In this document: positions 490 to 20,087 of the stretch, piece by piece | Layout of the letters: the number at the start of each line of letters is the position of its first letter | How positions within the stretch are numbered: the first letter of the stretch is position 1 | Source of the DNA: Baffinella frigidus | Lineage: Eukaryota > Cryptophyceae > Cryptomonadales > Baffinellaceae | Assembly: GCA_026770585.1 (NCBI GenBank) | Contig: MU646823.1 | Coordinates: 181,156-204,422 of the forward strand | Direction: 5' to 3' | Length of the DNA stretch: 23,267 nucleotides | Notes under the pieces: generated by a model | Seen by the model: only the letters and a program-made list of their open reading frames with translations | The model's database searches: none | What the model was told of the DNA's origin: nothing | Translations under genes and position numbers: made by a program

Positions 490-546
490 CAAACACTAAC
501 CCCGAAAACCGGAATCCGCAGGTGGACGGGCCGGGCCCGCCGAAGA
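490..546 (+). pseudogene. Exon echo: acceptor and start of the 735-800 exon
   Basis: The sequence from the intronic CCCCGAAAACCGGAA through the acceptor and the first about 25 coding bases (GTGGACGGGCCGGGCCCG) is nearly the same as 714-760. The copy therefore spans the intron-exon junction. Its coding part is cut off after CCGAAG. Further echoes of the other end of this exon lie near 935-955 and at 1334-1360, the latter encoding RAKVPLCKK followed by GT. Confidence 0.7.
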
Positions 547-734
547 CGGACCCGTTCCAAGGGTGTCCGTGTACTGCTGTCACGTCCCGAAAGTAGTACC
601 GGGCTGTAACAAGGCGGTACAAAAAGGTACAAGCCGGTACAAAAAGTTACTACCGTCACGTCCAAATAAGCCGTCCATCTATCATATATAGGCCACACCC
701 ACAAGAATTTAACCCCGAAAACCGGAAACCGCAG

Positions 735-1712
735 GTGGACGGGCCGGGCCCGCCGAAGCCGCGGAAGCCGCGCGCCAAGATTCCTATCTGGAAAAAGAAG
801 GTCCCTACCCCTCACCCCTGAAGCCAACGCGGTTTGACCATGAAGGTGAGCGGGGTGGTGTTGGGTGTCCTTGAGGTTAGCGAGTGTGCCGCACGGAACA
901 CACGCTCCAGGAGTGAGGTTCTCTCCTAGCTCGGACGCCGCGCGCCAAGGTTCCCATCGTCCCCCACAACCAACTCCCCACACCCTACGCTGGGATACTC
1001 CTTTTTTTGGAGCGATTTACGAATGGCTCCAAGAAAACTGCGGTGCACCGCGGTTTGACCGTCAGGGTTTGACCATGTTAATGGTCAAACGCTGCTTTTG
1101 ACCATCAAGATGGACCCAGATAACCCGAACCCCTACACCCTCAACGAAAACCCCTAAACCCTAAACCTTAAACCCTGAACCCTGAACCCTAACCCTGAAC
1201 CATAAACCCTAAACCCTAAACCCTAAACCCTAAATATTGGACCCTGAACGGGAAACGCTAGACCGAAACCCTAGACCGAAACCCTAGACTGAAACCCTAG
1301 ACCGAAAGCCTAGACCGAAAGCCTAGACCGAAACGTGCCAAGGTGCCCCTCTGCAAGAAGGTGCCCGCGTCATTAGAAACACCTCTTCTTTTCAGGGAAA
1401 AGTACGTTTAGGGTTTTTTCAGTTTAGGGGTTAGGGGTTAGGTCGTTTAATACGGATCGAAACCAACATGGCCGCCGTGTATTCCCTTTTCTGGTGCTGA
1501 TGAAATCTACTGAAGTTGACCAAAAACACTTCAATTGACAAAGTTTTCTTGAGTTGACAAGGTCCACTTAAGTTGACCAAGTACACTTAAGTTGACGAAG
1601 TTTACTTACGGACGACTTCCTTGTGGAGCAGGGGCCGCTGACGGAGCTGGAGAGAGAGCGGATCGACCTTCTCGGCAAGAAGGCGATTGGCCGCGGCAGG
1701 AAGCCCCGCTAA
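735..1712 (+). CDS. 3' part of an unrecognised plus-strand gene (basic C-terminus)
   Basis: Two candidate exons. The first, 735-800, is preceded by CCGCAG and followed by GTCCCT. It encodes 22 residues rich in Pro, Lys and Arg (VDGPGPPKPRKP, then RAKIPIWKKK). The second is an open terminal exon, clearly codon-like from about 1605 to the TAA at 1710-1712, containing DDFLVEQGPLTELERERIDL and ending GRGRKPR. The best acceptor before it (AG at 1599-1600) does not match the phase of the first exon, so an intermediate exon or another acceptor is needed. The first exon is echoed by decayed copies at 490-546, about 935-955 and 1334-1360, the same signature seen around the better-supported genes, which strengthens the call. 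The charged tail could contact nucleic acid, but I recognise no family. The 5' end lies outside the window or was not found. Confidence 0.45.
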
Positions 1713-2598: not shown

Positions 2599-5500
2599 TC
2601 AGATCTGGCCCTTCTCTCGCATCTCGATCAAGAGAATATTCGGGGCCCCGGATCGATGGGGCCCCCAGATGTCCAACACCTCCCCAGCCGCCCGCGGATT
2701 CGAAAGCGCGAGGTCTGTAAACGCCTGCTTCAGGGTTTGGGGTTTGAGGTTTGGGGTGTGGGATGCGGGTGTAGGGTTTGGGGGTTGGGTTTGGGGTTTG
2801 AACCTAGGCAATTTGGGGTTACGGTTGACGGTTGACGGTTTAGAGGTGAGGGGTTATGAGGGCTTAGAGGTTGGGTTTCGGGTATAGGGTGTAGGGATTG
2901 GGGTTCAGGGTTGCTAAACCCACACAACTACTATCAGCTGGACCAAAAGGAGAAGAACAACCTAAACCCTAAACCACAAATGGCAGCAGCAAACAAAAAA
3001 TGTGTTCTCACCAATACAGTCCCGGGGATCAAGTGTCTCACCAACACAGTCCGTGTCTCACCAATCAAGTGTCTCACCAACATCAAGTGTCTCACCAACA
3101 TCAAGTGTCTCACCAACATCAAGTGTCTCACCAACATCAAGTGTCTCACCAACATCAAGTGTCTCACCAACACAGTCCACATCAAGTGTCTCACCAACAC
3201 AGTCCACATCAACCAACACAGTGTCTCACCAACACAGTCCGGGGGATCAAGTGCGCGGAACGACAAGCATGCCTCAATCCTCAATCCTCAACTCCGAACC
3301 CTGAACCCTCAACTGTGAACCCTCAACCCTCAACCTTGAACCGTGGGTTCTCAACCCTAAAGAGGCGAGCCGGGCTGGCCGTATTGCGTGGTGTGGTGCT
3401 CCTGTAGGTCCGTGAGGTTCTTGGAGCTGCCAACATAGGCGCACACTGGAACGTATCCCGCAGGAAAGCCCTGGTTCCTTTCGGATCGCATCTCCCACAA
3501 AGGCGCCGCGACCGGTTTTGCGGTTCGTGTTTGGTGTTTAGGTCTCATGTTTCAGGGTGTAGGGTTGAGCGTGCGGGGTTACGCGGAGCGGGCGGAGCAC
3601 CTGCAACTCTTTCTCGGCCACCCCTTTGTCGCCACGCCTCTCCTATTTAGGGTTTAGGGCTGAGGGTCTAGGGTTGAGGGTTGAGGGTTTAGGGTTTAGG
3701 GTTTAGGGTTGAGGGTTTGGGGTTTAGGGTTCAGGGTTGAGGGTTCAGTGTTCAGTGTTTTGAGAACCGGGTATAGGGTTGAGGGTTTAGGGTCAAGAGT
3801 TTGGGGTCAAGGGTTTGGGGTTGAGGGTTGAGGGTTTAGGGCTTAGGGCTTAGGGCTTAGGGCTTGGGGGCTATGGTTTAGGGTTTAGGGTACCGCCACG
3901 CGGATGCGGAGATCGTGCCCGAGCAGCCCAAAGTACTCCAGATCCTGCGTGCCTGCCGGGTTCAGGGATGAGGGTTGAGGGTTTAGGGGGTTTCCGGTGT
4001 TTTCTTTGGGCTTTCGGGTTTGGGGTTTGGGGTTTAGGGATCGTGCCCGAGGAGCCCAAAGTACTACAAATCCAGCGTGCCTGCCGTCAGGCGTTGCGTT
4101 GGGGGTTTAGGGTTTGGGGTTGGTGGTTTAGGCTTTAAGGTTTAGGGTCAAGGGTTTTAGGGTGTAGTGTTTAGGGTTGAGGGTTTAGGGTTTGGGGTTT
4201 GGTGTTTGGGGTGTGGGGTTTGGGGTTTGGGGTTTGGGGATTGGGGTTTGGGGTTGAGGGGTTAGGGGTGTTACTAGACGACGCCTTGGCTTTCTCTTGG
4301 AAGCGAATCAGCAACGCCTCCAGCCCCGCGTCCTCCTCTGCATTGTTCAAACCGTTCAGGGTTTAGGATTCAGGGTTCAGGGCGAATTTTGTTGTCTCCG
4401 CTTTCTGCTCAAGGGTCACAGGTGAGAGCCACGCCAGGTCACACGGTGCGAATGTCAAACGCACCGTTCCGTGCTCAAAGTGTTTCGCGGTACAGAAAAA
4501 AATGTATAGCAGACAGGAGAATGGCTCCACGGACGAGACGTTGGGCGTGTTTCCCGGGCGAGAATCAACTTTAGCGAGAATCAACTTTACTCGGGCTAGA
4601 TGGCCTTGCAAACGACCGCCCCATTTGTGCCCTGGCGCGGCGTCCAGCAGCGCGAGGCAGAGGGCACGCAGGACTTGGAACTCGAAGCCCACTTTCGTGA
4701 TTTCGCGGGTAGCATCATCGGTCTTGAACGACCCCCTAAATTTGGCGATATCACGTTTACCACAGCCGTTGACTAGTACCTGGCGCGGCGTCCAGCAGCG
4801 CGCGAGGAGGACTTCCAGCTCCAGCGTTTTCGCCGTCTCGATTTTGGAGAAAACGCAACGGTTCGCGGACGTGCATGGTAGCAACCTTTGTACGGACGGT
4901 AGCAATTTTGCTCAACTAAGTCAAGTTATATTTCCCACTCACTCGTGTGACCTGGCGCGGCGTCCAACAGCGCGAGGCAGAGGGCGAGGAGGACTTCGAG
5001 CTCCAGCGTTTTCGCCATGTCGCCATCCTCGACCAAGTCCGTCACTGTTAGCCTGCGGTCATTTAGGTCCTTTAGGTTTTGATTTCTCCCAACATAGCCC
5101 AACGACACGCCTTTCTGTAGAAAAGATCTGCAGAGAAAGCATTTTTGCTTTCGGATCGCAGCGGGGTTTGGGGTTCGGGGGTTAGGTGTAGGATGTTGGG
5201 TGTAGGGTTGGACGCAGGAGCCAGGTGTTGGGGATTTCAAATCGGACACCCTAAACCCTAAACTATAAACCCTCAACCCTCAACCTTAAACCCTAAACCC
5301 TCAACCCTAAACCCTAAACCCTAACCCCTGGACCCTAAACCTTAAACCCTGGATGACACTCGATGCATAATCTGGGGGGTTGGGTCGCGTTGAGAGGCTG
5401 AGAATGACACCGAAACGCGTGGGATGCCATGGACACTGTGTCCAAGAACGCACCAATACCTCCAATAGCGCCAGCCCCCCTTCGGGTGTGCAGAGATGCT

Positions 5501-7718
5501 GGCCAAAGGGAATGATGCGAATTCTGGAAAGCGTTGGCGGTGCTGCAACAAAAAGGCCACTTTGCCCAATTTGCATTATTTCGGCGGCCAACTTCTCTTT
5601 TGATTTATTGATAGCAGACAGTTTAGGGATTAGGGTTCGTTCGATCCGCTGAAGTCCCGGGGAATGGAGTAGGGTTTGGGTTTGAGGTTTAGGGATTGGG
5701 GTTGAAGGTACAGGGTTTAGAGATTAGGGTGTAGGGTTAAGGGGAATTGAGTAGCCTGATTTAGGGTTTAGGGTTTGAGGTTCAGGGTGTAGGGTGTAGG
5801 GTGTAGGGTTTAGGGTTTAGGGTTGAAAGTTCATGGTATGTATGTATTATGGTTTATGGTTCATGGTTGATGGTGTAGGGTGTAGGGTGTAGGGTTGAAG
5901 GTCCATGGTATATACATACTATGGTTTATGGTGGAGGGTGTAGGGTGTAGGGTGTAGGGTTGAAGGTTCATGGTATATAAATATCATGGTTAATGGTGTA
6001 GGGTTTATGGTGTAGGGTTTATGGTTTATGGTGGAGGGTGTAGGGGGTACGCGTGGCGAAGGAGGTCGACAGCCTCCTGCGTCTTGTGCACCCCTTCTCG
6101 GAACACCTGCCAACCCACGCGATGTTTCGGTTTTGGGGATAGTGTTCAGTGTTTAGTGTTGAGGGTGTAGGGTTTAGGGTTTTGGGTTAAGGGTTTGGGG
6201 CTGAGGATTTAGGATTGAGGATTTAGGATTCAGGGTTTGGGGTTTGGGGTTTAGGGTGTAGGGTGTAGGGTGTAGGGTGTAGGGTCCAGGGTTCAGGGTT
6301 CAGGGTTCACGATCTAGGGCTTAACGAACCTGGGTCGCTAGCTGTAGGCACGCATTGCACTCATCCTCTCTTCCTCTCTCTCTCTCTGCTCCCCCCCCCC
6401 CACTCTTTCTGGGAGTCAAGGGCGTAACGCACCAGGGTGGCCAGCTGCAGGCACGCGTTGCACCTGGTTTCGGATTTCGGCATTCGGCTTTAGGCTTCAG
6501 GGTTTCGGGTTTCGCGTTCGGAGTTTCGGGTTTCGGGTTTCGGGTTTCGGGTTTCGGGTTTCGAGTTTCGGAAATCGGGTTTCAGGTTTCGGCGTTGCAC
6601 TCCGTTTCGTAGAAGCCGTGGGCCTGTGCGAGGTCTTGCGCCTGTTTGCACCACTTCCTGGTTTCGGGTTTCGGGTTTGGGGTTTGGGGTTGGGGTTTGG
6701 GGTGAGGGGTTTGGGTTTTGGGGTTGGGGTTTGGGGTTTGGGGTCTGGGTTTGGGGTCTGGGTTTGGGGTTTGGGGTTTGGGTTTGGGGTTTGGGGTTTG
6801 GGGCTTGGGGTTTGGGGCTTGGGGTTTGGGGGTTGGGGTTTAGTGCTGATATGTAGGGGCCAGGGTGAGGATCCGCGGGTTTACCGCGCGGTATCGAGAT
6901 GCCCGGAAGATTGAAACGCCCCCGCAGCCTCCACCATTGCGCGCCCTGAGGAGAGTTGCTTGATTACACCATGACCACGTACTAAGACCCCCCTGTTGGG
7001 GTATTTGGGCTACTAGGATCTGGAGTTCTCTCACACACGAGCGCCCCCGCAGCCTCAACCATGGCGCGGCCCAATCCGGGAGTACCTTTCATTTGAAAGA
7101 AAATGGTCCCCTGTTTGTTCATAGGAGTTGGACGAAGGTTTATCAGGGCTCGACCTAAATTCGATTAGGGTCAGGATCCGGTTTGATAGGCCGTTTTCTT
7201 TTAAACATGTTCCCGGATGAGACCTTGGTCTCGGAAGCGCTGGCATGCGCCCAGGACGTCGACCTTGCGGAGAAAGAACGGAACCGCCTTGGCAAAGTCG
7301 AGCGTCTCCGAGTGCGCGTACGCGAACTCCCCGAGGATCGCTGCGCGGCGCTGGTCGTCGCCCGCCCCAGCGAGGAACTCTTCCAACTTGCCCTCCCACG
7401 CCAGCACGCCGTCCCAGTCGCGCGCAGCGCGCGCATGCTGCACTGCGCTCCAGAATTGTTGCAGCTCCTCCACGCACGTCTGCTTGTGACCTTTCCAGGC
7501 CGCCTTCTGGCACCTGCTCGCAGTCGAGGCCAGGCGTGAATGACGGATTGCCCCACCCAAACACCACCCCACCGTGCGCGCACGCCCTCTGGAAGGGGCA
7601 CTCACTCCTTGCCGCAATAGCTTACGAGCTTGCACCGTAGACACTTCTTCAGATCCCCCTCCCCTTTCTTGGCCTTGCCGCAGTGGCCGCATTTGGCCTC
7701 GCTGGCGCTCGCCGACAT
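2599..7718 (-). CDS. MYND zinc-finger protein with TPR-like helical repeats, 11 exons
   Basis: Exons, 5' to 3' on the minus strand: 7718-7606, 7513-7224, 6945-6885, 6657-6601, 6463-6433, 6106-6051, 5542-5460, 4337-4275, 3952-3894, 3639-3601, and a tentative last exon 2724-2599 ending in TGA. All introns are GT-AG and every junction keeps phase, giving about 325 residues. Residues 10-55 form a MYND finger: CGHC, CLRC, YCGKECQ, then W-K-G-H-K-Q-T-C, i.e. the CxxC, CxxC, CxxxC, HxxxC zinc ligands. The rest is helical and TPR-like (WSAVQHARAARDWDGVLAW; RKWCKQAQDLAQAHGFYETE; REGVHKTQEAVDLLRH; LEALLIRFQEKAKAS). MYND domains bind short Pro-rich peptides, so a scaffold role is likely; there is no SET domain. 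The start was chosen as the ATG directly before the finger. Exons 1-6 are strong, 7-10 good, the last weak. Confidence 0.78.
3005..3252. repeat. 18-base minisatellite inside the last MYND intron
   Basis: The unit CTCACCAACATCAAGTGT is repeated about seven times almost perfectly (roughly 3057-3180), flanked by longer variants with CACAGTCC. It sits between the tentative last two exons of the MYND gene. Spacers are not unique, so it is not a CRISPR array. Confidence 0.9.
3360..3510 (-). mobile_element. SINE-like element, diverged subfamily
   Basis: Contains GTCCGTGAGGTTCTTGGAGC, CCAACATAGGCG, CACTGGAAC, CCCGCAGGA and CCTTTCGGATC in the same order as the copies at 9457-9560 and (other strand) 14421-14531. 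The tail (reading minus) is a decayed CCTAAAGGACCTAAA. Confidence 0.6.
3650..4262. repeat. TTTAGGG-type arrays forming MYND introns, with one exon echo
   Basis: The plus strand is G-rich, so the sense strand of this minus gene reads CCCTAAA. Within it, 4039-4092 is a decayed copy of the exon at 3894-3952: the shared text reads GATCGTGCCCGAGGAGCCCA and AAGTACTACAAATCC. In the copy the frame GTLDL is followed by a stop and then YFGLLGHD, against GTQDLEYFGLLGHD in the exon. Confidence 0.8.
4410..5035. repeat. Composite interspersed repeat (GGCGCGGCGTCCAGCAGCG blocks)
   Basis: The block GGCGCGGCGTCCAGCAGCG, followed by GAGGCAGAGGGC or a variant, occurs three times (about 4635, 4778, 4955). The flank at 4440-4600 (GTGCGAATGTCAAACGCACC, GTGTTTCGCGGTACA, TTGGGCGTGTTTCCCGGGCG) recurs at 17690-17830 in the GGCT-like gene. 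It lies in the MYND intron between exons 7 and 8. Open frames here (LLDAAPGH) are repeat translations. Confidence 0.65.
5060..5162 (-). mobile_element. SINE-like element (CCTAAAGG tail), main subfamily
   Basis: On the minus strand it reads GCGATCCGAAAGCAAAAATG, CTTTCTCTGCAG, GGCGTGTCGTTGGGCTATG, TTGGGAGAAATCAAAACC, then TAAAGGACCTAAATGACC. It closely matches the plus-strand copies at 8.0-9.1 kb. The conserved body and short repeated tail suggest a SINE or similar retroposon. I see no tRNA-like head. Confidence 0.65.
5640..6045. repeat. TTTAGGG-like array with GGGTGTAGGGTGTAGGG variants
   Basis: Nearly the whole intron between MYND exons 6 and 7 is telomere-like, with a shift toward GTGTAGG. 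A higher-order unit of roughly 60-80 bases (TTCATGGTATATA, ATGGTTTATGG, TGTAGGG) repeats about three times at 5830-6040. Confidence 0.85.
6326..6362 (-). pseudogene. Exon echo of MYND exon 5
   Basis: Read on the minus strand it encodes CNACLQLATQ followed by GTTCGTTAAG. The real exon (6463-6433) encodes CNACLQLATL followed by GTGCGTTACG. Of five base differences in ten codons, four are silent. It is flanked by AG and GT, but joining it to exon 4 breaks phase, so I treat it as an echo and not a used exon. Confidence 0.7.
6475..6600. repeat. TTTCGGG array in MYND intron 4
   Basis: A six-base variant array (GTTTCG repeats) fills the intron. The next intron 5'-ward (6658-6884) is a TTTGGGG array (6660-6840). 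Adjacent introns of one gene are thus each homogenised for a different telomere-like variant. Confidence 0.8.
7040..7077 (-). pseudogene. Exon echo of MYND exon 3 (start half)
   Basis: Minus strand: GCGCCATGGTTGAGGCTGCG, then GGGGCGCTC, against the real exon GCGCAATGGTGGAGGCTGCG, then GGGGCGTTT. It would encode AMVEAAGAL against AMVEAAGAF. It lies upstream of its exon within the same intron. Confidence 0.75.
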
Positions 7719-7780: not shown

Positions 7781-7824
<44 letters not shown>

Positions 7825-9133: not shown

Positions 9134-9140
9134 GGCCGAG

Positions 9141-9450: not shown

Positions 9451-9456
9451 GTGAGC

Positions 9457-9824: not shown

Positions 9825-9837
9825 AACAGAAAACAAA

Positions 9838-10375: not shown

Positions 10376-10560
10376 GTTCTGGCTAGTAGATGCACTCGCA
10401 CCACCCAGCTCCAATCCTCGAATATCTCCAACACCTTGAAAACCTCGAATGCTTCCAACAGCTCCAACGGATCCGATAGCTCCTACAGCTTGAATAGCTC
10501 CAGTAGCAGAAAGCTCCTGAATAGCTCCAGTGGCTCTACAGCTCGAATGGCTCCACCAGC
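10376..10560. repeat. AGCTCC-rich imperfect repeats
   Basis: Short units such as AATAGCTCCAGTAGC and AACAGCTCCAACGG recur about every 12-24 bases and give Ser/Asn-rich translations. Similar GGAGCCATTGGAGCC units (other orientation) lie at 20140-20400. Nearby 11341-11400 repeats AGTGGCTCTACAGCT. Confidence 0.6.
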
Positions 10561-10641
10561 TCCGAAGGCTCTTGAGAGATTCTTCAGAGGGCCGCAACAG
10601 CCTCAAAGGTTGGAGCGATTGGTGGTGGGAGGAATTGAGCT

Positions 10642-13600
10642 TCAGAGGGCCCCGCACGCCTCGAAGAGCTTGGTGAGCTCGCCGCTCTTGCCCTTGGAGA
10701 CCACGTCATCGCCGCCGCCGATGAACTTGCCTGCGGGGAGAGAGACCTTTGTTACTACCAACACACCCACTGTCTATTCTCCCCCTGCAGGGATAGGGGT
10801 TAGGGGTTTCGGCTGGCCGCTCTTGCCCGTGGCGACACCATCGTCGCTGCCGCCGATGGACTTGCCTAGGGTTTCGGGTCCAGGGTTGAGGGTGTGTGGT
10901 GTATGACAGTTTGTGATAGGGTTTCGGGTTTGAGGTTTGGGGTTTAGGGTTTGGGGTTTGGGGTTTGGGGTGGGGGGGTTGAGGTTTGAGGTTTGGGGTT
11001 TGAGTTTGGGGTTTGGGGCACGTCATCGCCACCCCCGATTAACTTCCCTGCTGGGAGAGAGATGTGCACAGGGTTTAAGGTTTGTGGTCTGGGGTTTTAG
11101 GTTTAGGGTTTAGGAGGGGGCGGAGGGAGGATGAAGCGGGGGCGGGGAGGGTTCGTACACCCTACTCCCTAAACCCTCAACGGTAAATCGCCTACACCCC
11201 AACACTCTCAACGCTAAGAGGAAGGGCAATGAAGACGCGCGTTTTCATCACCGTAAGGGTGTGTCACCCTTCACCCCTTCACTCCTACCCCCTCAATCCC
11301 CTACAACCCAAACTCATGAACGCCAAGTTGACCGTCCAACGCCTTAAATAGCACCAGTGGCTCTACAGCTTGGCTCTACAGCTCAGTGGCTCTACAGCTC
11401 GGGGTTGAGGGGTTCGGGGTTTCGGTTGTAGGAGGGGGGGGAGGACCTCCGATGAAGACGCGCGGCACGTAGCGGCCGCCCGTGATCCCGGTTGGGATCA
11501 CCGGCCAATGGCTCCAACAACTAGTGCCTCAAAACTTTGAGCATGATATCCTGGTTCGCCTCAACACTCAACCCTAAAAATAAATAAAAAACGCTAAACC
11601 CCTGAACCCTAATCCCCTCGACCCCTGAGCTCTGAGCCCCCCAAAAGGTGAACGCGAAGAAGACATGCGGCGAAGAAGCGGGGGACAGAGCGGCCGCCGG
11701 TGACGCCCAACATGATAATCCCTAACCCCTCATCCTTCTAAACCCTACACCCCAACCCCTACTCCCCAAACCACGCTAGGTTGACCGGCGACGAAGCGCC
11801 TTCGGGGTTATGGTTTGGGGAGTAGGGGTTGGGGTTTCGGAACACCTCCGACGAAGACGCGCGGCACTAAGGTGGCCGGTGACGAAGGGTTCGGGGTTCA
11901 GGGGTTCGGGGTTTCGGTTTCAGGTGGGGGAGGCGGACCTGCGACGAAGACGCGGGGGACAGAGCGGCCGCCCGTGATGCCCAGCATGATGTCCTGGATC
12001 TCTGACCCGTCGGCCCGCGTATCCAGCTCGACCACCTTGAGGGGTTTGGGGTTCAGCTGCTTCGCCTTGAAGGTTGCAGGGTTTTGGGGTTGGAGTTGAA
12101 GGGGGGTCGAGGTTTCGGGTCCTGGATGCCCGACCCGTCGGGCCGGGAATCCAGCTCGATCACTTACCATACGGTTTACGTTCAGGCGAGTGTTTAGGGT
12201 GCAGGGTTCCGGATTTAGCTCCATTGCCGTTAGGGTCCAGCGACATTGGCTGTGTGGGTTCAGGGTTGAGGACACGAGAGATGGCGAGAACATCATGTCC
12301 TGGATGTCAGACCCGTCGGGTCGGGCGTCCAGCTCCATTGCTTCTGGGCTTGGCGCCATAGCCTTGACGGTTCAGGGTTTCGGGGTAATGGGAGCTGGGC
12401 TGGGGGTGTAGGTTTAAAGTTTAGGGTTTAGGGGGGTGGGGGGCTAGGGCTTAGGGTTTAGGGGGGTTGGTGTTGAGTGTTGAGTGTTTAGGGTTTGGAG
12501 GGTTTAGGGTTTAGGATTTAGAGTTTAGGGTTTAGGGTTTAGGGTTTCGGGGGGTTCGGGTNNNNNNNNNNNNNNNNNNNNNNNNNNNNNNNNNNNNNNN
12601 NNNNNNNNNNNNNNNNNNNNNNNNNNNNNNNNNNNNNNNNNNNNNNNNNNNNNNNNNNNNNNNNNNNNNNNNNNNNNNNNNNNNNNNNNNNNNNNNNNNN
12701 NNNNNNNNNNNNNNNNNNNNNNNNNNNNNNNNNNNNNNNNNNNNNNNNNNNNNNNNNNNNNNNNNNNNNNNNNNNNNNNNNNNNNNNNNNNNNNNNNNNN
12801 NNNNNNNNNNNNNNNNNNNNNNNNNNNNNNNNNNNNNNNNNNNNNNNNNNNNNNNNNNNNNNNNNNNNNNNNNNNNNNNNNNNNNNNNNNNNNNNNNNNN
12901 NNNGGGGAGGGAATGTGTGTGGTTGAGAAACGGATAGAGAGTGATCGAGCGGGAGAGGAGGGGAGCGCGCGTGTGAGAGAGAGAGTGATTTATTCAGGTC
13001 ACCACGTCCTGGTGCAAATCGGCCGTTCCGAAACGATCTACAAACTCGCCTTGTGGTGGCTGCTGGGTCTATCCGGCAGTAGTTTGAGGGGGGTGCTGGT
13101 GATAGAGAGGGGTCAGCAGAGAGACTCTCGCAGCCCTGCAAGGCACAGCTTCGCACAGGGCCGTGCTGCCCCGACATTCCTCAGTTCAAACCCAAACCCT
13201 CTCTGCAAATCCTCGACCTTCAACCCGGAAACCTGCACCCACACCCCCAACCACCTCTCACCCCAAGCCTAACAAGGCGGGGCGAGACCTTGTTGGAGGA
13301 GATCTGGCTCTGGACCATCTCCTCGAGGTTGCCGCCGTTGGCTGACATGGCCCTGACGCCCGAGACGGTCGAGCCGCGGGGGCGGACGGACGAGCCGCTG
13401 AGCGAGGAGAGCGCGGAGAGGGAGACCGGCGAGGCGAAGGCGAGTGCGGCGGTGTGCGGCGCGGGGCCGGACCTGCGGGTGGGGGGGTGGGGGAGGTTTT
13501 GGTGGATTTTGCAGGGGTGTCTGCACGACAATGTCGGAAGGAGCGGTGGAGGTAGGGTGGGGTGGGGTGGTTGGTGTTGGCGAAAGGCGGCGACGTGTGT

Positions 13601-13970
13601 GCGTGGGGGGGGTAGGTGGGGTTGCGGGAGCGTGAGTGCTCCGGTCGGACCAGGGCTCCCGTCCGCCAAGCCGGGGTCTTGTATGTCGGGGGGGCGCTGA
13701 CCGGAGGCAGGGCGCGCTCGGGCGTTCTCGGAGCAAGCACACGCGGTGGGGAATGGTATGGTGCCACGGGGAACCAGCGGGCCTCGGGCAGAGCTGGCTG
13801 CGGAGCCCGAACGCTGGGTGCAAGGCCACATCGGAGGAGGCCGAAGCACGAGAAGGCTGGATGGTTGTTCCAGAGAGGAAGGGCAAGGGTGCGGGAATCC
13901 CCGATGGGGGGAGGGGGTACCTGCAGAGAGCGGGAAGGGCAAAGGCCAAGATAGCGACGACTCCACGCAT
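10642..13970 (-). CDS. Glutaredoxin with two-part (plastid) leader; active-site exon missing
   Basis: Minus-strand exons: 13970-13921 (ATG), 13472-13289, [missing], 12035-11939, 10730-10642 (TGA). Introns are GT-AG; phases agree, and the missing part must be a multiple of three bases. Exon 1 encodes MRGVVAILAFALPALC, a clean signal peptide. Exon 2 adds a Ser/Ala/Arg-rich stretch with LAFASP, like the Phe-based cleavage motif of complex-plastid proteins, then NLEEMVQSQISSNK, the helix before the active site. Exon 4 gives VVELDTRADGSEIQD and TGGRSVPRVFVAG (VP marks the cis-Pro glutathione site). The last exon gives KFIGGGDDVVSKGKSGELTK, with the GG-DD glutathione-binding motif. The expected about 27 residues with CPYC or CGFS are absent and should lie in the gap at 12562-12903, so mono- or dithiol class is open. 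The ELDxxxDG text favours the dithiol class. Confidence 0.92.
10811..10865 (-). pseudogene. Exon echo 1 of the glutaredoxin last exon
   Basis: Preceded by AG, it would encode GKSIGGSDDGVATGKSGQP, against GKFIGGGDDVVSKGKSGEL in the real exon. It lies upstream of its exon within the last intron and has no stop codon of its own at the expected place. Confidence 0.85.
11020..11060 (-). pseudogene. Exon echo 2 of the glutaredoxin last exon, with its acceptor
   Basis: Minus strand: CTCTCTCCCAGCAG then GGAAGTTAATCGGGGGTGGC, then GATGACGTG. The real junction reads CTCTCTCCCCGCAG then GCAAGTTCATCGGC. The intronic pyrimidine tract and acceptor were thus copied with the coding start. It encodes GKLIGGGDDV, then breaks into CCCCAAA repeat. 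Coding differences are mostly silent. Confidence 0.85.
11445..11886 (-). pseudogene. Three echoes of glutaredoxin exon 4 (3' half and donor)
   Basis: Copies at about 11445-11505 (ITGGRYVPRVFIGG then GTCC), 11655-11714 (MLGVTGGRSVPRFFAA) and 11843-11886 (short, decayed). Each matches the end of the real exon, ITGGRSVPRVFVAG then GTCCGCCTCC; the first also keeps GTCCTCCCCCC after it. All lie downstream of the exon in the last intron, so they copy the exon end plus intron start. Confidence 0.8.
12121..12342 (-). pseudogene. Two echoes of glutaredoxin exon 4 (5' half)
   Basis: 12163-12121 encodes VIELDSRPDGSGIQD. 12342-12292 encodes AMELDARPDGSDIQDMM. The real exon gives VVELDTRADGSEIQDIM. They lie on the 5' side of the exon, so together with the 3'-half echoes on the other side the exon is bracketed by copies of whichever half faces them. 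Confidence 0.85.
12562..12903. other. Assembly gap (342 N)
   Basis: A run of N inside the glutaredoxin gene between exon 2 and exon 4, flanked on the left by TTTAGGG arrays. It probably hides the active-site exon. The true length may differ from 342. Confidence 0.98.
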
Positions 13971-14168
13971 GGAGCTGGTGTGAATGCGGTGTAGTGCTCG
14001 GAAGCGAGTGCACGGAACTTTTGAAAAACAAAACAGGAAAAATCCGGACCTCGGGCGGGCAGGGCTCCACGACACCTAGGACACCCCGCCTCGAACCCGA
14101 CGATCCTAGCATCACCGTCCTAGTGCACAGGCGCTTCTGGACGGCAGTCCGCACATCCGTCGACCACA
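13971..14168. promoter_or_regulatory. Candidate bidirectional promoter
   Basis: Only 198 bases separate the start codon of the minus-strand glutaredoxin (13970) from that of the plus-strand GGCT-like gene (14169). There is no telomere-like array here, unlike almost every other non-coding interval. No TATA box is evident. The hexamer GTGCAC occurs twice (about 14009 and 14122). Promoter function is inferred from position. Confidence 0.5.
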
Positions 14169-17100
14169 ATGCTCCCGCCTGCCGTGCCGCCCCCCGCGTG
14201 GCTCCAGCCGCCGGCGGGCCTCGTCAACCCCTCCACGGGGCGCTTCACGCTCGTCGGGTCAGCCCAGCTCCCGCAACGTCGGCTGTTTCTATCGTCGGCC
14301 GATTTTTAACGGGGGGGGTGTTGTGATTCAGTTCCCGTCCTGGTACAAATCGGCATTCCCCAAGCGATCGAAACAGTCGAGTCGCCCCGCTTGAGGACCA
14401 CTCTTTAGCCAGTTTCTGCTGCGATCCTCCGCGCCGGAATGCTTGATGCTTGAAAAGCAGGGTCATCCTGCGGAACCAGTTCCAGTGTTCGCCTATGGTG
14501 GGAGCTCGAACAACCTAAAGGACCTAAACAGTCGACTTGTGGAGGCTGGTGGCCTCTTCGCCGCCTTTGGGCACGGTTCGGGGCTCTACTTACCCTCACA
14601 GTGGAAGCACTACACCCCAACTTCTAACCCCTAACACCTCAACCCTGACCCCTGAACCGGGTACGGGTCACTGGTGAGCGCGGAGTCAGCGGCGGCGACG
14701 ATGGGCCCCTCGATCTCAACCTCTCACACGGATCCTAATCCAGCCCCGAGGAGGGTGCGGGAGGATCCCAATTTAGCCCCTTGGTGCATTCAAGATGCCC
14801 CTGGAGGCCACGGCTCGTAAGCCCCAGGCGTGAAACAGGTACGGGTCCCTGGTGAGCGAGTCGTCAGCGGCAGCGACGATGGGCCCCTCGATCTCGAAGT
14901 GGCGCACCGGCCGCGTCGAGGGCTACGCTCGCGTGCGAGCCCTTTGGGGGTTGGGGTTTGGGGGTTTAGGGGTTTGGGGCCTTTGGGGTTTGGGGCTTTT
15001 AGAGTGTGGGGTTTGGGGTTGGTGTCGTGAACGATGAACGATGAACGATGAACCGTAAACCTCTCCGCCCCCATTAAAATTATCGGCCGTGTGGGGGGCC
15101 GCTTTCCCTGGCCCAAGTTGGTTCACAAGTTTTTCGCGGACCTTAATACATCGAAAAAAATCTGGCCACCCCTAACCTCGAACCCCCAAACCCCAAACCC
15201 TACCCCGCACCCAAAAACAATCAACCCCCAACCCCCAAAACTAAGCCCTAACCCCTCGAAACTAAACCAGAAACACCACCTCCCAAGCACAAACCCTACA
15301 CCGGAACCCCAAACCCCAAACCCCAAACCCCAAACCCCAAACCCTACGCTCGCGTGCGTACCCCCCCCCCCGTGTTCAACCCGGGCGTGACTGAGTACAA
15401 ACCCTCGATGGACGTGACCATGTGTTCAACTCGGACGCGACCCACACATAACCCCATAAACCCTGGACCCTGGACCCCACACCCTAAACCCCACCCCACC
15501 GCTCCTGGCCTGTAGGTGTTCAACCTGGTCTCGATCATCAACATCGCGCGCAATTTCACGGATGGGGACCGCATGGCCACCTGCACGGCCGTTTCCACCC
15601 CTGGGGCACACCTCGAGGTTTATCCCACAGTCCCGTGATGTGCCGATGTGTACCGCGCGGGGTACGATTTCGTGCCCGTGCGGTACACCTCGGCATTTCC
15701 CAACCGGTCCATCAAGTGCCCAACCCTGGGGCACACCTCGAGGTTTCCACCCACAGCGGTTGACTGACTCGGGCAGGGTTTGTACCGGGGCGGGGATGGG
15801 ACCGGGCAGGGTTAGTATCAGGGACGCGTGTGATCAGTCAACTGCCTGGGACTGTAGTTGACTAAAATTGAACACGTTCGCCGATGACACCCGTGTGGTA
15901 CAAATCGAGTATGCCAATTTGAAATCCAAACTGGATTGGAACTAAAATTGATTTCAAACCAGGCGTGCATCTTCGACGCGCCTGCCGAGCGGTGCGAGAG
16001 GACTTCACAGCCCTTAACACCCTAACTGTGGGGGAGGCTATGGGGCACATAGGCTCCGGATATCCGGGGATAACGCGACCAAAAATTGCTGACTTTTGAC
16101 ATGTTTCCTTAAGAAACAATCGAATAATTAACTTTAGAATGTTCCCCGTGGTGTTCCGAGTGCCCCCCCGTATTAAATACAGGTATCTCTCTCTCTCGGA
16201 CAGACGGTTACAAAAGATATCAGCAAACGAGAGAGACTTTCACTTTATCCTTTCTAACATTTTTTACAGAAAGAGAGAGAGAGAGACCTATATTGAATGA
16301 AAATCGCGCGTATTATTTCCCTAAGCGTCTTAATCCGTTTGGCACGTTCGTTTTGGACGTAACGGTCCCTCTACAACAGGTGAGCTTCTTCGAGGCGCCT
16401 GCCGAGCGGTACGCGGACTCCACAACCCCTAGCCCGTTAACCCCTTGAACCCTACACCCGACACCCTACACTATACACCCTAAAGCCTCAAGTGGGAGGG
16501 TGCATACATATCAGACCTTGACGTATCAGTCAAGGTCTCACTCCCCGGATGGCGTTGGGGTCCCGGACATCTGACCCAAATCCCTAACCCCTAACCCCTT
16601 ACCCCTGAAGGTGTGCATATTCGACGCGCCTGCCGAGCGGTACGAGGACTTCGCGCGGCGAGAGGCCCGCCTCCAACACCAGGTCCTCCACCCGAAACCC
16701 AACCCCTAAACCGAAACCCAACCCATAAACCCGAAACCCAACCCATAAACCCCGAAACCCAACCCATAAACCACCCGAAACCCAACCCATAAACCCAACC
16801 CATAAACCTTAAACCCTAAGACCTTAACCCTGGGGTTAGTGTTTAGTATTTCGGGTTTAGGGTGGGGGTTTAGGGGTTAGCGGTTAGGGGCGCGGGTGCA
16901 GGGTTAGGGGTTAGGGGTAAGGGTTGAGGGGTTGAGGGTTAGGGGTTAGGGTTGAGGAGTGGTACACGGACTTCGCGCGAAGAGAGGCCTGCCTCCAACA
17001 TCAGGTCCTCCAACCTGCACCCCAACCCCTCATCTCTGAACCATGAACCCTCAATCTTGAATTCTGAACCCTACACCCTGCACCCTGAACCTCAACCCCA

Positions 17101-18989
17101 AACCCTAACCCCTGGGGTTCGGGTTCAGGGTTTAGGGTTGGAACAAAACCAGCGATGGTACGTGGATCGAGGCAGTCAGCCCCACTATCGGTAGGACCAA
17201 CCCGCAGTCCCTACAGACGGCCTACCGTAGGGTACTATGGGAAACCCGAAACCCGAAACTCGAAACCCGAAACCCGAAACCCGAAACCCGAAACCCTGTT
17301 GGAGCAGCTTTACGTGACTGAGGGCGACAGGAAAGTGAAGCGGGGGTGGGAGTCAGGTGGTGGATTTCACAGAGGATGGGGGGGGGGTCGGACGAGGCAT
17401 CATGTGCACCGCGTGGTCTGACGAGGTACCAACACGCGAGGCGCCTGTTGACTCATCCGGATCCGGGTTGTCACGGGAACGTCTCTACACCCAGAGGGTG
17501 ACACCCAGAGGGTGTGGACGGGAAATAGCGATGACTGGTCACGGGGGGGTTGGGGTTTGGAGTTCGGGGTTTAGGTTTTAGGGATAAGGGTTTAGGGTTT
17601 AGGGGTTTAGGTTCACACACCGTGACACGCCGCCGTACCTGAGAGAACACGCACTTTTGGATGACAGCCAACCCACGCCAGATCACGCGTGCGAATGCCA
17701 GATCACGCGTGCGAATTTCAAACGCAACGTTTCGCTGTACAAGTGTTTCGTGGTACAAATTCCATATTGCTGCGGCAGCGGGCTTTGACTTTGGGCGTGA
17801 TTCCCAGGCAGAAAATCACCAAATCAACCCTATGCTCTAATCATTTATTGCCACTTAGCAGCGACCGAGGACCTTTTCATCTTGAATCCAAGGTGAAATT
17901 CCGGTTAGGTTCTAGGGCAGTGGATTAGATTCTAGTACAAATCGCTTGGATGACTGTATCCGTGAAGCCCCCGATGGCTGCTGAGTGGTTGGGGGCTGCG
18001 CGTGTGATCCTGACAGGAGTACCGGAAAGAGCGGATCTGCGACGAAGCAGACTATCACGAGCAGGTGTCCACACCCTTCACCCCAAAACCCCGAAACCTA
18101 AACCCCCCAACCCCTAAACCCTAAACCCTAAACCCTAAACCCTAAACCCTAAACCCTAAACCCTAAACCTTAAACCCTTCAGGTCGGGCGGTTCTACACC
18201 GGGAAGCTCTGGCGGGACGACTTGCTCCCTGTCCCGCGGTGCCCCCCCCCCCCCCCTCCTCCTCCCGCGCTAGACTCTTCTTTGCATCTCTCCGACCTCG
18301 AAAAAGAGGGATCAAAAAGTGAAACGATGATAATCTCGTGTTGGGCGGTCGACGCGGTCCCCGTGGCGGGACAACTTGCTCCCTGTCCCGCGGCGCCTCC
18401 TCCTCCCCTTCTCTCGCGCTCGGGTCTCGGGTGTAGGGTGAACGGTGTAGGGTGAAGGGTGACGGGCGAGAGGGAAGGATGTAGTGTTTAGGGTCTAGGG
18501 TTGTGGGTTTCGGGTGGCGGCTTGCGCTCTGTCCCGCGGTGCCCCCCCTCTCCTCTCGCTTTAGGTTTTGGGGTTTAGGGAATAATTTTCAGGGTTTAGG
18601 GGTTCAGCGTTCGGGGTTTAGGATGAAGGGTTCAGGGTTGAAGGGTTCGGGGTTGGGGGTGAGGGACGTTGCGTGTGTAGTTACTTGCAAGTAGCCAAAA
18701 ACGGCGTGTGGACTCGCGTTGTCCCTGAATACATGGCGGCCGAGCTGGTACTACTCAAGGTCTCTCGCTCTCTCGTCGCCTCCTCGGCTACTTCCTAGAG
18801 AGACGTGAACCCCCAAATATAAACCCCAAACCCCAAACCCCAAACCCTAAACCCTAAACCCTAAACCCTAAACCCTAAACCCTGACATGAAAAGCAGGTA
18901 TCTATCGCTGGTGGTGGAGGCGCACCGAGAGCTGGACGCGCGGCTGGGGACCACGCGCTTCTCCGATAACCTCCTGCAGGTACTTGTCT

Positions 18990-19034
<45 letters not shown>

Positions 19035-19431
19035 GGTTGACAGCCTGTTGCGAAACCTTTGAGGAACAGGTTCCGGTGTTCTGGGAGAACACTTGAGCGA
19101 GGGGTCTCCCGCGCTCTCTCTCTTTGGAGCAACTCGTCGCTCGTGTTGTTGAGAGGCCTTGACGCTTTTGTGGGGACCGCGCGCTTCTCGGATATCCTTT
19201 TGCAGGTGAAGGATTCATGGTTGTGGGTGTAGGGATGAGGGTGTAGGGTTCAGGGGTTTAGGGTTTAAGGTTTAGGGTTTAGGGGTTTGATAACCTCGTG
19301 CAGATTGCGAGCCTTACTTGTTCGTCTTTGATAAGTGTCTGATGAGAGAAGCGCGCATCCCCCCTCCCCTTCAGCACACTTGTCCCAGGCCTGTAATCCT
19401 CGGGGTGTTACACTTTTTCTTTGGTGTTTGT

Positions 19432-19470
<39 letters not shown>

Positions 19471-20087
19471 CGTGTGTGTGTGTGCTGAAAGAAAGTTTGA
19501 TTTGGAGTTTGTGCGATGATGCTTGGCGTTTTCCGCTGCACATGTTCCTCGGCGTTTCGTGGTACTCAATGAGTGTGCGCTCCCCGGTGAAACGCAACTC
19601 CTCGTCCTTCCCACGTCCAATCGTTTACTCGATTCCAAAAACAAAATTACACACGGTCAAACCAGACTTGTACCTAAAATTCCTACGTGTGCCCTGACGT
19701 GGCCTGCCGTGTGGCGAGCCCGGGCTCTTTTCAGCTCCAAAGTTGACGGATTTGTACCGCAAACCCAGCATGTCAACTTAAGCATAGGCTCTTGCGTGGA
19801 CAGTGCGCGTTCCTGGGCGACGGCACTCGCCTCGCTCTGCCTCTCGCGTCGCTCTGCCTTACTCGGGTTTCACTCGGGTTGCCGGACTATTCTCAAGTTG
19901 ACACGCCGGGTGTGCGCTACAAATCTGCCAACTTTGCAGGCTAAATCGGGCGGGAAAGAGCATGGTCGCAAGCGAAATAGACCGTTAACGTGCCGCCCTC
20001 TCCTTGCAGCACACGTTTCTGGGCGACGGCACGCGCCTCGACAGCTTCCTCGAAAAAGAAAATGCCACCTCCAAGACCTTACAGTAG
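14169..20087 (+). CDS. Gamma-glutamylcyclotransferase-fold (AIG2/GGCT-like) protein, nine exons, 229 residues
   Basis: Exons: 14169-14257, 14839-14932, 15516-15617, 16611-16682, 17357-17425, 18017-18064, 18183-18238, 18898-18979, 20010-20087. All eight introns are GT-AG and phases agree at every junction. The N-terminus is Pro-rich (MLPPAVPPPAWLQPP). STGRFTLV-GYGSL carries the YGSL loop that binds the gamma-glutamyl group in this fold. Then come GRVEGYAR-VFNLVSI, MATCTAV, VCIFDAPAERYEDFARREAR (the Glu of RRE is a candidate catalytic acid, by comparison with ChaC REKGGY), VVDFTEDGG, MCTAWSDE-EYRKERICDEA, VGRFYTGKLWRDDLLPVP, YLSLVVEAHRELDARLG and HTFLGDGTRLDSFLEKE. The fold includes enzymes that release 5-oxoproline from glutathione or gamma-glutamyl amino acids, but many members are uncharacterised and activity is unproven. 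No leader is evident, so cytosol is likely. The stop lies in MITE-like sequence. Confidence 0.82.
14421..14531 (+). mobile_element. SINE-like element in intron 1 of the GGCT-like gene
   Basis: GCGATCCTCCGCGCCGG, CATCCTGCGGAACCAGTTCC, AGTGTTCGCCTATGGTGGGA, GCTCGAACAACCTAAAGGAC, CTAAA. It is the plus-strand counterpart of 3360-3510 and 9457-9560, with the clean CCTAAAGGACCTAAA tail. Confidence 0.65.
14655..14727 (+). pseudogene. Exon echo of GGCT-like exon 2 (start half)
   Basis: Encodes YGSLVSAESAAATMGPSIS, against YGSLVSESSAAATMGPSIS in the real exon at 14839. It lies in intron 1. The acceptor AG is lost (CCGG instead of ACAG), so it should not be spliced. Confidence 0.88.
15343..15440 (+). 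pseudogene. Echoes of the exon 2 end and exon 3 start
   Basis: CCTACGCTCGCGTGCGTACC repeats the exon 2 end plus donor (GCTACGCTCGC then GTGCGAGCC). After a run of C, GTGTTCAACCCGGGCG and then TGTGTTCAACTCGGACG repeat the start of exon 3 (GTGTTCAACCTGG). All lie in intron 2. Confidence 0.75.
15629..15760 (+). pseudogene. Echo of the exon 3 end in intron 3
   Basis: CTGGGGCACACCTCGAGGTT at 15727-15746 repeats 15601-15620 exactly (exon end plus GT), and both are followed by similar pyrimidine-rich text with CCCACAG. The intervening 15640-15720 reads open as YDFVPVRYTSAFPNRSIK but includes the repeated CGGTACACCTCGGCATTTCC motif (compare 14341 and 13012), so I treat it as repeat. Confidence 0.7.
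15960..16430 (+). pseudogene. Two echoes of GGCT-like exon 4 (start half)
   Basis: 15961-16010 (CAGGCGTGCATCTTCGACGC, GCCTGCCGAGCGG) and 16379-16430 (AGGTGAGCTTCTTCGAGGCG, CCTGCCGAGCGGTACG) both match the real start at 16611 (AAGGTGTGCATATTCGACGC). Both keep an upstream AG and are followed by a run that ends in CCCTAA-type repeat. The first has an extra G that breaks the frame. Confidence 0.88.
16140..16300. other. AT-richer intronic stretch with CT/GA tracts
   Basis: Between the two exon 4 echoes lies a lower-GC stretch with TCTCTCTCTC and AGAGAGAGAGAG, able to pair with each other across about 90 bases. No gene signal. Confidence 0.4.
16690..17110. repeat. Telomere-like arrays of intron 4, with exon 4 3' echo
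   Basis: C-rich CCGAAACCCAACCCATAAA units (16690-16825) are followed by a G-rich inverted block (16830-16950), then an echo of the exon 4 end at 16954-17015 (GGTACACGGACTTCGCGCGA, GAGAGGCCTGC, CTCCAACATCAGGTCCTCC; real CTCCAACACCAGGTCCTCC), then C-rich units again to 17110. The donor GT was copied with the exon end. Confidence 0.85.
17666..17830 (+). repeat. Second copy of the 4.4-kb composite repeat
   Basis: GCCAGATCACGCGTGCGAAT (a 20-base piece duplicated in tandem), TTTCAAACGCAACGTTTCGC, AAGTGTTTCGTGGTACAAAT and TTGGGCGTGATTCCCAGGC match 4432-4565 in order. It lies in intron 5 of the GGCT-like gene. Confidence 0.65.
18065..18182 (+). repeat. 118-base intron made almost wholly of CCCTAAA
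   Basis: Intron 6 of the GGCT-like gene: GTGTCCACACCCTTCACC, then about ten CCCTAAA-type heptamers (18109-18170 nearly perfect), then CCCTTCAG. The array itself abuts the acceptor, so it supplies the pyrimidine-rich tract and any branch site (CTAAAC). Confidence 0.92.
18360..18560 (+). pseudogene. Two echoes of the GGCT-like exon 7 end
   Basis: 18363-18397 (GTGGCGGGACAACTTGCTCC, CTGTCCCGCGG) and 18513-18548 (GGCGGCTTGCGCTCTGTCCC, GCGGTGCCCCCC) match the end of exon 7 and its intron start at 18210-18250 (TGGCGGGACGACTTGCTCCC, TGTCCCGCG then GTGCCCCCC). Both lie downstream in intron 7. Confidence 0.88.
18690..18752 (+). other. Possible cryptic exon in intron 7
   Basis: GTAG, then an open codon-like run encoding KNGVWTRVVPEYMAAELVLL and K, then GTCTCT. 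Exon 7 joins exon 8 in perfect phase without it, so it is not needed, and in no phase does it fit between them cleanly. It could be a decayed alternative exon. Confidence 0.25.
19165..19310 (+). pseudogene. Two echoes of the GGCT-like exon 8 end
   Basis: 19171-19206 encodes GTARFSDILLQ then GTGAAG; the real exon end encodes GTTRFSDNLLQ then GTACTT. A weaker third copy at 19286-19302 (TTTGATAACCTCGTGCAG) follows a TTTAGGG block. All lie in intron 8. Confidence 0.85.
19434..19484. repeat. (GT)n microsatellite
   Basis: About 50 bases of GT with a single interruption, in intron 8 of the GGCT-like gene. Confidence 0.95.
19801..19840 (+). pseudogene. Exon echo of the last GGCT-like exon (start)
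   Basis: GCGTTCCTGGGCGACGGCAC, TCGCCTCG matches the last exon ACGTTTCTGGGCGACGGCAC, GCGCCTCG. It encodes FLGDGTRL, then diverges. It lies about 200 bases upstream of the real exon in the same intron. Confidence 0.85.

What the first reader, a model, noticed from the sequence alone, without database searches (positions are those of the whole stretch)
10811..20010. Exon echoes: decayed partial copies of exons spanning splice junctions beside nearly every exon
At least 15 exons of four genes have one to five degraded partial copies in the adjoining intron. Copies on the 5' side carry intron end, AG and exon start (for example 11020-11060, 15961, 16379). Copies on the 3' side carry exon end, GT and intron start (for example 16954-17015, 18363, 18513, 19171, 11445). 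Each half faces its own intron. Duplication of a segment containing AGGT is an established model of intron gain, but repeated, two-sided echoes throughout a genome region, interleaved with telomere-like arrays, look like an active intron-growth process I have not seen described in this form.
Basis: partly seen in the sequence, partly recalled or inferred. Interest (0 to 1): 0.88.

Follow-up and report, generated by a model that had tools for sequence, protein, structure and literature searches.

The report
Exon-end copies left by insertions
In this alga, probably a cryptophyte, many exons have worn copies of one of their ends in the neighbouring intron, each on the side expected if other DNA had landed at the exon's edge and doubled the target, so the copies are likely scars of insertions that made introns grow.

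Summary
The echoes are real, local and one-sided. With 18 window exons as queries, all 18 strong matches (E<1e-4) are on the sense strand within 605 bp of their own exon; 5'-half copies lie upstream (9 of 9), 3'-half copies downstream (9 of 9). A CCT1 gene elsewhere (17 exons) repeats this, 7 of 7. They are less universal than claimed: 11 of 18 window exons, 14 of 30 exons fixed by protein homology. They are not decayed tandem duplications: copies stay short and sharp-edged at every age and are separated by unrelated filler. Copy-filler-copy with the exon body always outside is the shape of a target-site duplication around an insert. One insert is identified: 161 bp between 52-bp repeats (window 497-761) recurs at 40 further places at 98-100% identity; of 14 fetched, four have their own abutting 32-43-bp repeats and ten do not. 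Telomere-like arrays are some of the fillers but at most about twofold enriched. Intron growth by staggered breaks is published for Daphnia with 4-12-bp repeats; junction-spanning repeats of 27-69 bp in series are a new variant. The insertion route is inferred.

The parts
14169..20087 (+). Nine-exon gene (exons 14169-14257, 14839-14932, 15516-15617, 16611-16682, 17357-17425, 18017-18064, 18183-18238, 18898-18979, 20010-20087)
   Evidence: one open frame, GT-AG introns; 53% and 51% identical to Guillardia and Hanusia proteins
14653..14717 (+). 5'-half echo of exon 2
   Evidence: 89%, E 3e-20
15344..15358 (+). weak 3' echo of exon 2
   Evidence: 15 of 15 bases, E 0.008
15720..15756 (+). 3'-half echo of exon 3 with donor
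   Evidence: 89%, E 3e-8
15961..16006 (+). 5'-half echo of exon 4 with acceptor AG
   Evidence: 89%, E 4e-12
16378..16419 (+). second 5'-half echo of exon 4
   Evidence: 88%, E 2e-10
16957..17025 (+). 3'-half echo of exon 4 with donor
   Evidence: 84%, E 6e-16
18364..18408 (+). 3'-half echo of exon 7 with donor
   Evidence: 89%, E 3e-12
18518..18548 (+). second 3'-half echo of exon 7
   Evidence: 90%, E 3e-7
19171..19207 (+). 3'-half echo of exon 8 with donor
   Evidence: 86%, E 1e-7
19808..19834 (+). 5'-half echo of exon 9
   Evidence: 93%, E 1e-6
11939..12035 (-). Glutaredoxin-like exon B
   Evidence: joined to exon C it matches PF00462 at E 0.0013, below the cut-off
11430..11489 (-). 3'-half echo of exon B, with adjoining array
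   Evidence: 83%, E 1e-13
11662..11716 (-). 3'-half echo of exon B
   Evidence: 89%, E 2e-16
12119..12163 (-). 5'-half echo of exon B
   Evidence: 84%, E 3e-9
12291..12335 (-). second 5'-half echo of exon B
   Evidence: 82%, E 3e-8
10642..10730 (-). Glutaredoxin-like exon C
10812..10867 (-). 5'-half echo of exon C
   Evidence: 84%, E 1e-12
11019..11062 (-). second 5'-half echo of exon C with acceptor
   Evidence: 88.6%, E 3e-9; not in the table, which drops array-rich matches
497..761 (+). 52-bp direct repeat (497-548, 710-761) around a 161-bp dispersed element (549-709); second copy spans acceptor and start of exon W (735-800)
   Evidence: 96%; element at 40 further places at 98-100%; repeat absent from the 14 fetched copies
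3894..4086 (-). Exon My8 (3894-3952), filler mostly telomere-like array (3958-4039) and 5'-half echo (4039-4086)
   Evidence: 92%, E 2e-15; array fraction 0.79
6313..6463 (-). Exon My5 (6433-6463) and its downstream copy (6313-6360)
   Evidence: 83%, E 3e-10
6464..6600 (-). Candidate newborn intron: C-rich array between two copies of a 9-bp repeat (6592-6600, 6455-6463)

Best explanation
The echoes are copies of exon ends, 27-69 bp long in the strong cases, each separated from its exon by unrelated DNA and on the side where a target-site duplication would leave it, so they are likely old target-site duplications around DNA inserted at exon-intron borders. Shown: the copy-filler-copy shape, sharp edges at all ages, the sidedness, and one young case whose filler is a dispersed, recently spread element. 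Inferred: when the duplicated target spans a splice junction, splicing to the copy joined to the exon body restores the old mRNA, so the insert and the other half-copy become intron; repeated hits give a series of echoes, and each side keeps only its own half because the other half was never duplicated. Inferred, and the least certain step, is the route: a target-primed, reverse-transcription-like insertion with a wide stagger (about 30-55 bp), since the element's copies end near two 3' points but start at many 5' points.
For: Sidedness: 18 of 18 strong matches in the window and 7 of 7 in an independently found 17-exon CCT1 gene. Test without gene models: in 63 pairs from random loci the outer flanks look more coding than the filler-facing flanks in 41 (Wilcoxon p 0.005), while inverted control pairs give 16 of 34 (p 0.81); above a coding score of 0.2 there are 9 outer and 0 inner of 58 pairs. 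Shape: median copy 46-47 bp in the three bands from 80 to 100% identity (63 bp at 70-80%), adjoining 20-mers 25-27% identical against 25.5% for random ones, 1 of 144 pairs near its period in length. Insert: window 549-709 matches 40 further places at 98-100%; of the 14 of these that I fetched, four have abutting repeats of 43, 36, 32 and 37 bp at 97-100% identity, none holds the window's 52-bp repeat, and 5' starts vary while 3' ends cluster. A 35-bp perfect repeat flanks a left-truncated piece of a MITE-like repeat (L012:6173-6377).
Against: Ten of the 15 copies of the 161-bp element examined (the window's own included) have no clear abutting repeat (one of the ten is ambiguous), so this element often inserts without a long duplication. 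Fillers as a class do not stand out: telomere-like fraction 0.207 vs 0.206, dispersed-repeat hits 21 of 92 vs 112 of 460 random segments; of 29 exon-echo fillers 11 are at least half array, 4 hold a dispersed repeat and 14 are unidentified. Only one exon-echo filler (that of W) was matched to a young element, and W itself is an exon by my reading only. The reverse-transcriptase search (PF00078) did not complete. No relative's genome was at hand to show empty sites.
Confidence: 0.6

Rival explanations
1. Same shape, other route: staggered double-strand breaks are filled in and joined after capturing stray DNA (array pieces, repeat fragments, cDNA); no dedicated insertion enzyme is needed.
For: Fillers are mixed and resemble the genome average; 10 of 15 copies of the dated element lack a clear repeat, as expected if some breaks are blunt or trimmed; the Daphnia precedent (PMC4202315, passages) and fill-in at broken ends (PMC8355091, abstract).
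Against: The element's 3' ends cluster while its 5' ends are ragged, which random capture would not give.
Confidence: 0.27
2. Ordinary tandem duplications (for example of AGGT-holding segments) that have decayed, leaving only the constrained exon end recognisable.
For: AG|GT stands at 14 of 24 exon starts; selection on the exon copy does favour detection of exon parts.
Against: Young pairs are as short as old ones and have sharp edges; 1 of 144 fills its period.
Confidence: 0.04
3. Replication template switching: synthesis leaves the template after an exon end, copies other DNA, and returns slightly upstream, so that the exon end is copied twice around a templated filler.
For: Gives the same copy-filler-copy shape and sidedness; fillers resemble average genomic DNA.
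Against: The one identified young filler is a dispersed element with clustered 3' ends, which this route does not predict.
Confidence: 0.07
4. Local copying of exon ends into nearby pre-existing intron DNA; the sequence between copies is old.
For: Filler composition equals the background.
Against: Copies would land on either side; 25 of 25 strong ones lie on one predicted side, and outer flanks are the coding ones.
Confidence: 0.01
5. Functional elements (alternative exons or decoy splice sites) kept by selection, or an assembly artefact.
For: Some copies keep AG or GT beside the exon piece.
Against: Most strong copies cover at most one of the exon's two junctions and their identity is spread over 70-100%, unlike collapsed or duplicated reads; not tested with RNA or long reads.
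Confidence: 0.01

Closest known systems
Intron gain and growth by staggered double-strand-break repair, Daphnia pulex (PMC4202315, abstract and passages)
   Same: A direct repeat of the adjacent exon end lies at the far side of an insert; repeated bouts lengthen introns; 55 of 90 new introns had internal repeats (as printed).
   Different: There 4-12 bp and new introns averaging 77.7 bp; here 27-69 bp in the strong cases, spanning existing splice junctions, in decayed series, with up to several hundred bp of filler. My search would miss copies much under 25 bp.
Tandem genomic duplication of AGGT segments (review PMC3443670, passages)
   Same: Duplicated exon sequence becomes intron; AG|GT context at 14 of 24 exon starts.
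   Different: Copies are neither adjacent nor whole-unit.
Telomeric-repeat insertion at breaks in mammals (PMC2246262, passages)
   Same: Telomere-like DNA between duplicated target ends in some cases.
   Different: There duplication is a minority outcome (6 of 130 rodent and 4 of 25 primate loci as printed); here arrays are one filler among several.
Non-LTR retroposons, SINE/LINE type (recalled)
   Same: Clustered 3' ends, ragged 5' starts, variable target duplications in the 161-bp element.
   Different: Duplications of 32-52 bp are longer than the usual 5-20 bp (recalled) and clear in 5 of 15 copies; no enzyme identified.
Introner elements (recalled)
   Same: Short, near-identical, dispersed sequences that end up in introns.
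   Different: Not shown to supply splice sites at both ends; most echoes lengthen existing introns.

Membership tests
Staggered-break intron growth (Daphnia type) | insert bounded by direct repeats of the target | tested here: met
   abutting repeats around the dated element in 5 of 15 copies
Staggered-break intron growth (Daphnia type) | repeat length 4-12 bp | tested here: not met
   27-69 bp in strong cases; one 9-bp candidate at 6455-6463/6592-6600; shorter repeats largely undetectable here
Staggered-break intron growth (Daphnia type) | presence/absence of the insert between close relatives | not testable with these tools
   no relative held; P0003 reads through exons 2-6 without a break, DNA not available
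Tandem genomic duplication | copies homologous over the whole repeated unit | tested here: not met
   1 of 144 pairs
Non-LTR retroposon (161-bp element) | common 3' end with variable 5' truncation | tested here: met
   15 copies, 3' ends near two points
Non-LTR retroposon (161-bp element) | target-site duplication abutting both ends | tested here: inconclusive
   clear in 5 of 15 copies
Non-LTR retroposon (161-bp element) | reverse-transcriptase partner in the genome | not tested
   PF00078 search not answered
Telomeric-repeat insertion at breaks | arrays bounded by target duplications more often than other DNA | tested here: inconclusive
   16 of 353 vs 46 of 2,108, p 0.015 at the lowest cut and 0.028 at the next; p 0.08-0.16 at three higher cuts

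The most novel reading that the evidence does not exclude
A genome-wide ratchet: an insertion machinery that duplicates 30-55 bp of target keeps hitting exon borders, and splicing tolerates exactly those hits whose duplication spans a junction, so introns grow from both ends. Most intron mass of this genome, telomere-like arrays included, would be stacked inserts, each labelled by an exon-end copy that records its order of arrival; the arrays would be inserted telomeric-repeat DNA or cDNA.
Probability: 0.3. Interest if true: 0.82.

Novelty: new variant of a known kind. Interest (0 to 1): 0.6.

Why it matters
Where intron length comes from is rarely visible, because the sequence decays. Here each insertion at an exon border leaves a datable copy of a constrained sequence, so the order and age of intron-growth events can be read gene by gene. 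If the reading is right, this genome makes it possible to measure how often insertions at splice junctions survive, to tell growth from birth of introns, and to identify the enzyme that makes unusually long target duplications.

Tried and rejected
Telomere-like arrays as the specific cause: filler fraction equals background; edges of pairs are array-like in 41 of 300 inner and 26 of 298 outer cases. Dispersed repeats as the general filler: no enrichment. Decayed tandem duplication: opposed. A supposed exon at about 18673-18758 was dropped because homologues lack it. Pfam gave no family for my first reading of the nine-exon protein, which lacked one exon; the corrected reading was not rescanned. 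Rfam: no match in the window at gathering scores; in three element copies one match far below its cut-off. P0003 in viral contigs: nothing. Protein search with exons 2-4: nothing. Literature: eight searches listed no paper whose title or abstract start describes junction-spanning exon-end copies in introns; this covers open-licence full texts and those terms only.

Weak points: exon ends of My1, My2 and My4 were off by one to three bases (none of the three has an echo). L043 proved to be all N. The window part of the coding-flank test is partly circular.

Unanswered by the server: 18S rRNA (RF01960), PF00225, PF00069, PF00012, PF00078, exon 4 DNA (window:16605-16690), L023:6845-7099, L012:6208-6335, window:440-820.

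Full report
WHAT THE WINDOW IS. The window is G000:C512:181156-204422 of a 382-Mb, 1,364-contig assembly. The + strand gene at 14169-20087 has nine exons whose spliced frame is open throughout with GT-AG introns. Its best named relatives are proteins of Guillardia theta (53% identical over the alignment) and Hanusia phi (51%); a metagenome protein, P0003, is 59% and another, P0007, 44%. The organism is therefore probably a cryptophyte. Baffinella sp. CCMP2293 (534.5 Mbp, 10,880 scaffolds, GC 53.9% in PMC9756366, passages) is a candidate, but the assembly held here is smaller and has fewer pieces, so this is a guess. Of 20 stretches of 10 kb that I picked by place, 8 were wholly N.

THE OBSERVATION. 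Self-comparison of the window with telomere-like and tandem sequence masked shows many direct repeats some 90-650 bp apart. With 18 exons as queries against the whole window, 28 matches reach E 0.05: 18 with E<1e-4 and 10 weaker. All 18 strong ones are on the sense strand and within 605 bp of their own exon; nine cover the 5' half and lie upstream, nine cover the 3' half and lie downstream. Of the 10 weak ones, two are concordant copies beside their own exon and the others look like chance. One further concordant copy, 11019-11062, is but was dropped from that table by my filter against array-rich matches. Exons with a strong echo: 11 of 18, and 6 of 9 in the main gene. Five of the 18 exons (W, My4, My5, My6, My8) were delimited by eye after repeats had been seen.

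AN INDEPENDENT GENE. A CCT1 (TCP-1 alpha) gene found by a Pfam search was fetched (L042) and modelled as 17 exons in one open frame, one of its introns with a GC donor. I had already seen repeats at two of its exons in the search loci. Of 12 matches up to E 0.05, the seven with E up to 1.1e-4 are all sense, in the exon's own intron and on the predicted side; of the five weaker ones two also are, and three are antisense elsewhere. Six of 17 exons carry a strong echo. Together 25 of 25 strong copies are on the predicted side. In exons fixed by homology there are 21 such copies on 16 distinct exon sides, and 14 of 30 such exons have one (main gene 6 of 9, CCT1 6 of 17, glutaredoxin-like 2 of 2, MYND 0 of 2). 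The MYND pair passes Pfam's cut-off, the glutaredoxin-like pair does not quite (E 0.0013). The remaining exon-centred search loci show repeats at one further TCP1 exon (L029) and none at the others.

A TEST WITHOUT GENE MODELS. If filler separates two copies of a target, an exon body can only lie outside the pair. A codon score trained on 1,031 codons was applied to 60-bp flanks of direct pairs in loci not used for its coding part (some served for its background table). Outer flanks score higher in 41 of 63 pairs (binomial p 0.023, Wilcoxon p 0.005), in the window in 20 of 26 (partly circular), and in inverted control pairs in 16 of 34 (p 0.81). Above a score of 0.2, 9 outer and 0 inner flanks of 58 pairs look coding (with a slightly stricter removal of redundant pairs).

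NOT TANDEM DUPLICATIONS. In 97.2 kb of real sequence there are 127 direct and 36 inverted pairs within 1 kb, and no direct pair in three Markov controls. Copies have a median length of 46-47 bp in the identity bands 93-100, 88-93 and 80-88%, and 63 bp in 70-80%; the adjoining 20-mers match at 25-27% against 25.5% for random ones; 1 of 144 pairs reaches 80% of its period. So the copies were short from the start. Exact direct matches also exceed inverted ones at 10-12 bp (199 vs 104), so shorter duplications that my thresholds miss probably exist.

THE INSERT. The filler of the youngest exon-end case (497-548 and 710-761, 96%) is 161 bp long and matches 40 other places at 98-100%, 39 of them over at least 152 bases (291 first-look candidates, 40 scored). 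I fetched 14 of these 40 with 300 bp on each side. None holds the window's 52-bp repeat, so the repeat belongs to the target. Four have abutting direct repeats of 43 (L045, 100%), 36 (L047, 97%), 32 (L054, 100%) and 37 bp (L056, 97%); L053 is ambiguous in repetitive sequence; nine show none. Their 5' starts are ragged and their 3' ends lie near two points. In L012 a 35-bp perfect repeat flanks a left-truncated piece of a MITE-like repeat with 12 further matches in the sample.

OTHER FILLERS. Of 29 exon-echo fillers, 11 are at least half telomere-like array, 4 contain a dispersed repeat and 14 are unidentified. As a class, gaps do not differ from random segments in array content (0.207 vs 0.206) or dispersed repeats (21 of 92 vs 112 of 460), and inner edges of pairs are array-like only slightly more often than outer ones (41 of 300 vs 26 of 298). 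Arrays have abutting direct repeats about twice as often as control segments at the two lowest cuts (p 0.015 and 0.028), not significantly at three higher ones. I do not claim the arrays as the agent; a background that itself consists of such inserts would give the same picture.

HOW IT LIKELY WORKS (inferred). An insert enters with a wide stagger and duplicates 30-55 bp. If the duplicated target spans an acceptor, the second copy keeps acceptor and exon body and the first becomes intron; if it spans a donor, the mirror holds. The mRNA is unchanged, so the event is tolerated; hits inside exons are tolerated only if spliced out as new introns. A candidate newborn intron is 6464-6600 (minus strand): a C-rich array with a 9-bp repeat at both ends whose removal leaves a continuous frame. 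Fourteen of 24 exon starts of the two main genes read GT after AG; among the 22 that start with G, 14 go on with T, against 13% T after G inside the same exons (binomial tail 4e-8). This fits duplication of GT-starting targets but also a preference for AGGT sites. P0003, from contigs up to 22 kb, reads through exons 2 to 6 without interruption, which suggests that four of these introns are absent in a relative; its DNA could not be fetched and a transcript origin is not excluded.

HOW MUCH. In the nine-exon gene 2,526 of 5,229 intronic bases lie between an exon and its farthest own copy; without the two weak copies at 15344 and 19289 it is 2,007 (my arithmetic). Two of its eight introns have no echo.

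WHAT IS NEW. Repeats of exon ends across new introns, and repeated staggered breaks as a passive cause of intron growth, are published for Daphnia with 4-12-bp repeats (PMC4202315, abstract and passages). Fill-in at broken ends as a source of short tandem duplications is published for human and mouse cells (PMC8355091, abstract and outline). I found no description of long, junction-spanning, serial exon-end copies (eight searches, listed under Tried and rejected). This is a new variant of a known kind, with the route of insertion open.

Noticed in passing
window 3600-13970 and 14258-20009: Telomere-like arrays are strand-biased relative to genes: in the 150 nt before acceptors of the nine-exon gene 360 C-rich vs 24 G-rich bases (whole introns 945 vs 791); C-rich also prevails in sense in the MYND (1292 vs 204) and glutaredoxin-like (851 vs 418) regions. 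C-rich repeats might supply branch-point-like and pyrimidine signals.
   Followed up: partly
window 6464-6600: C-rich array intron with the 9-bp repeat GTGCAACGC at both ends: candidate newborn intron.
   Followed up: partly
exon starts of the genes in L042 and window: 14 of 24 exons start with GT after AG.
   Followed up: partly
L023:6136-7159: An exon-like stretch near 6742-6830 has a 5'-type copy upstream (6136-6188) and a 3'-type copy downstream (7100-7159); the origin of the downstream filler could not be searched.
   Followed up: partly
L025:1477-2066: 39-bp repeat, 97%, apparently spanning a start codon, with a 512-bp gap holding a dispersed inverted element: a duplication away from a splice junction.
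   Followed up: no
window 2359, 9693, 9890, 10011, 20799: Dispersed element with ends like ACAGGGGTACCTCGCTCATAAGAA in both orientations; related sequence in L002 and L025.
   Followed up: no
L012, L014, L022, L023, L002, L004: MITE-like family with inverted ends CCACACAGCGG and CCGCTGTGTGG.
   Followed up: partly
window 21979-22270: Two large imperfect palindromes that are also direct repeats of each other.
   Followed up: no
L009:1605-2643: Series of a 47-bp unit alternating with two different fillers, one telomere-like.
   Followed up: no
window 12562-13970: The start of the glutaredoxin-like gene looks like a signal plus transit peptide (recalled pattern); one of its exons probably lies in the 342-N gap at 12562-12903.
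   Followed up: no
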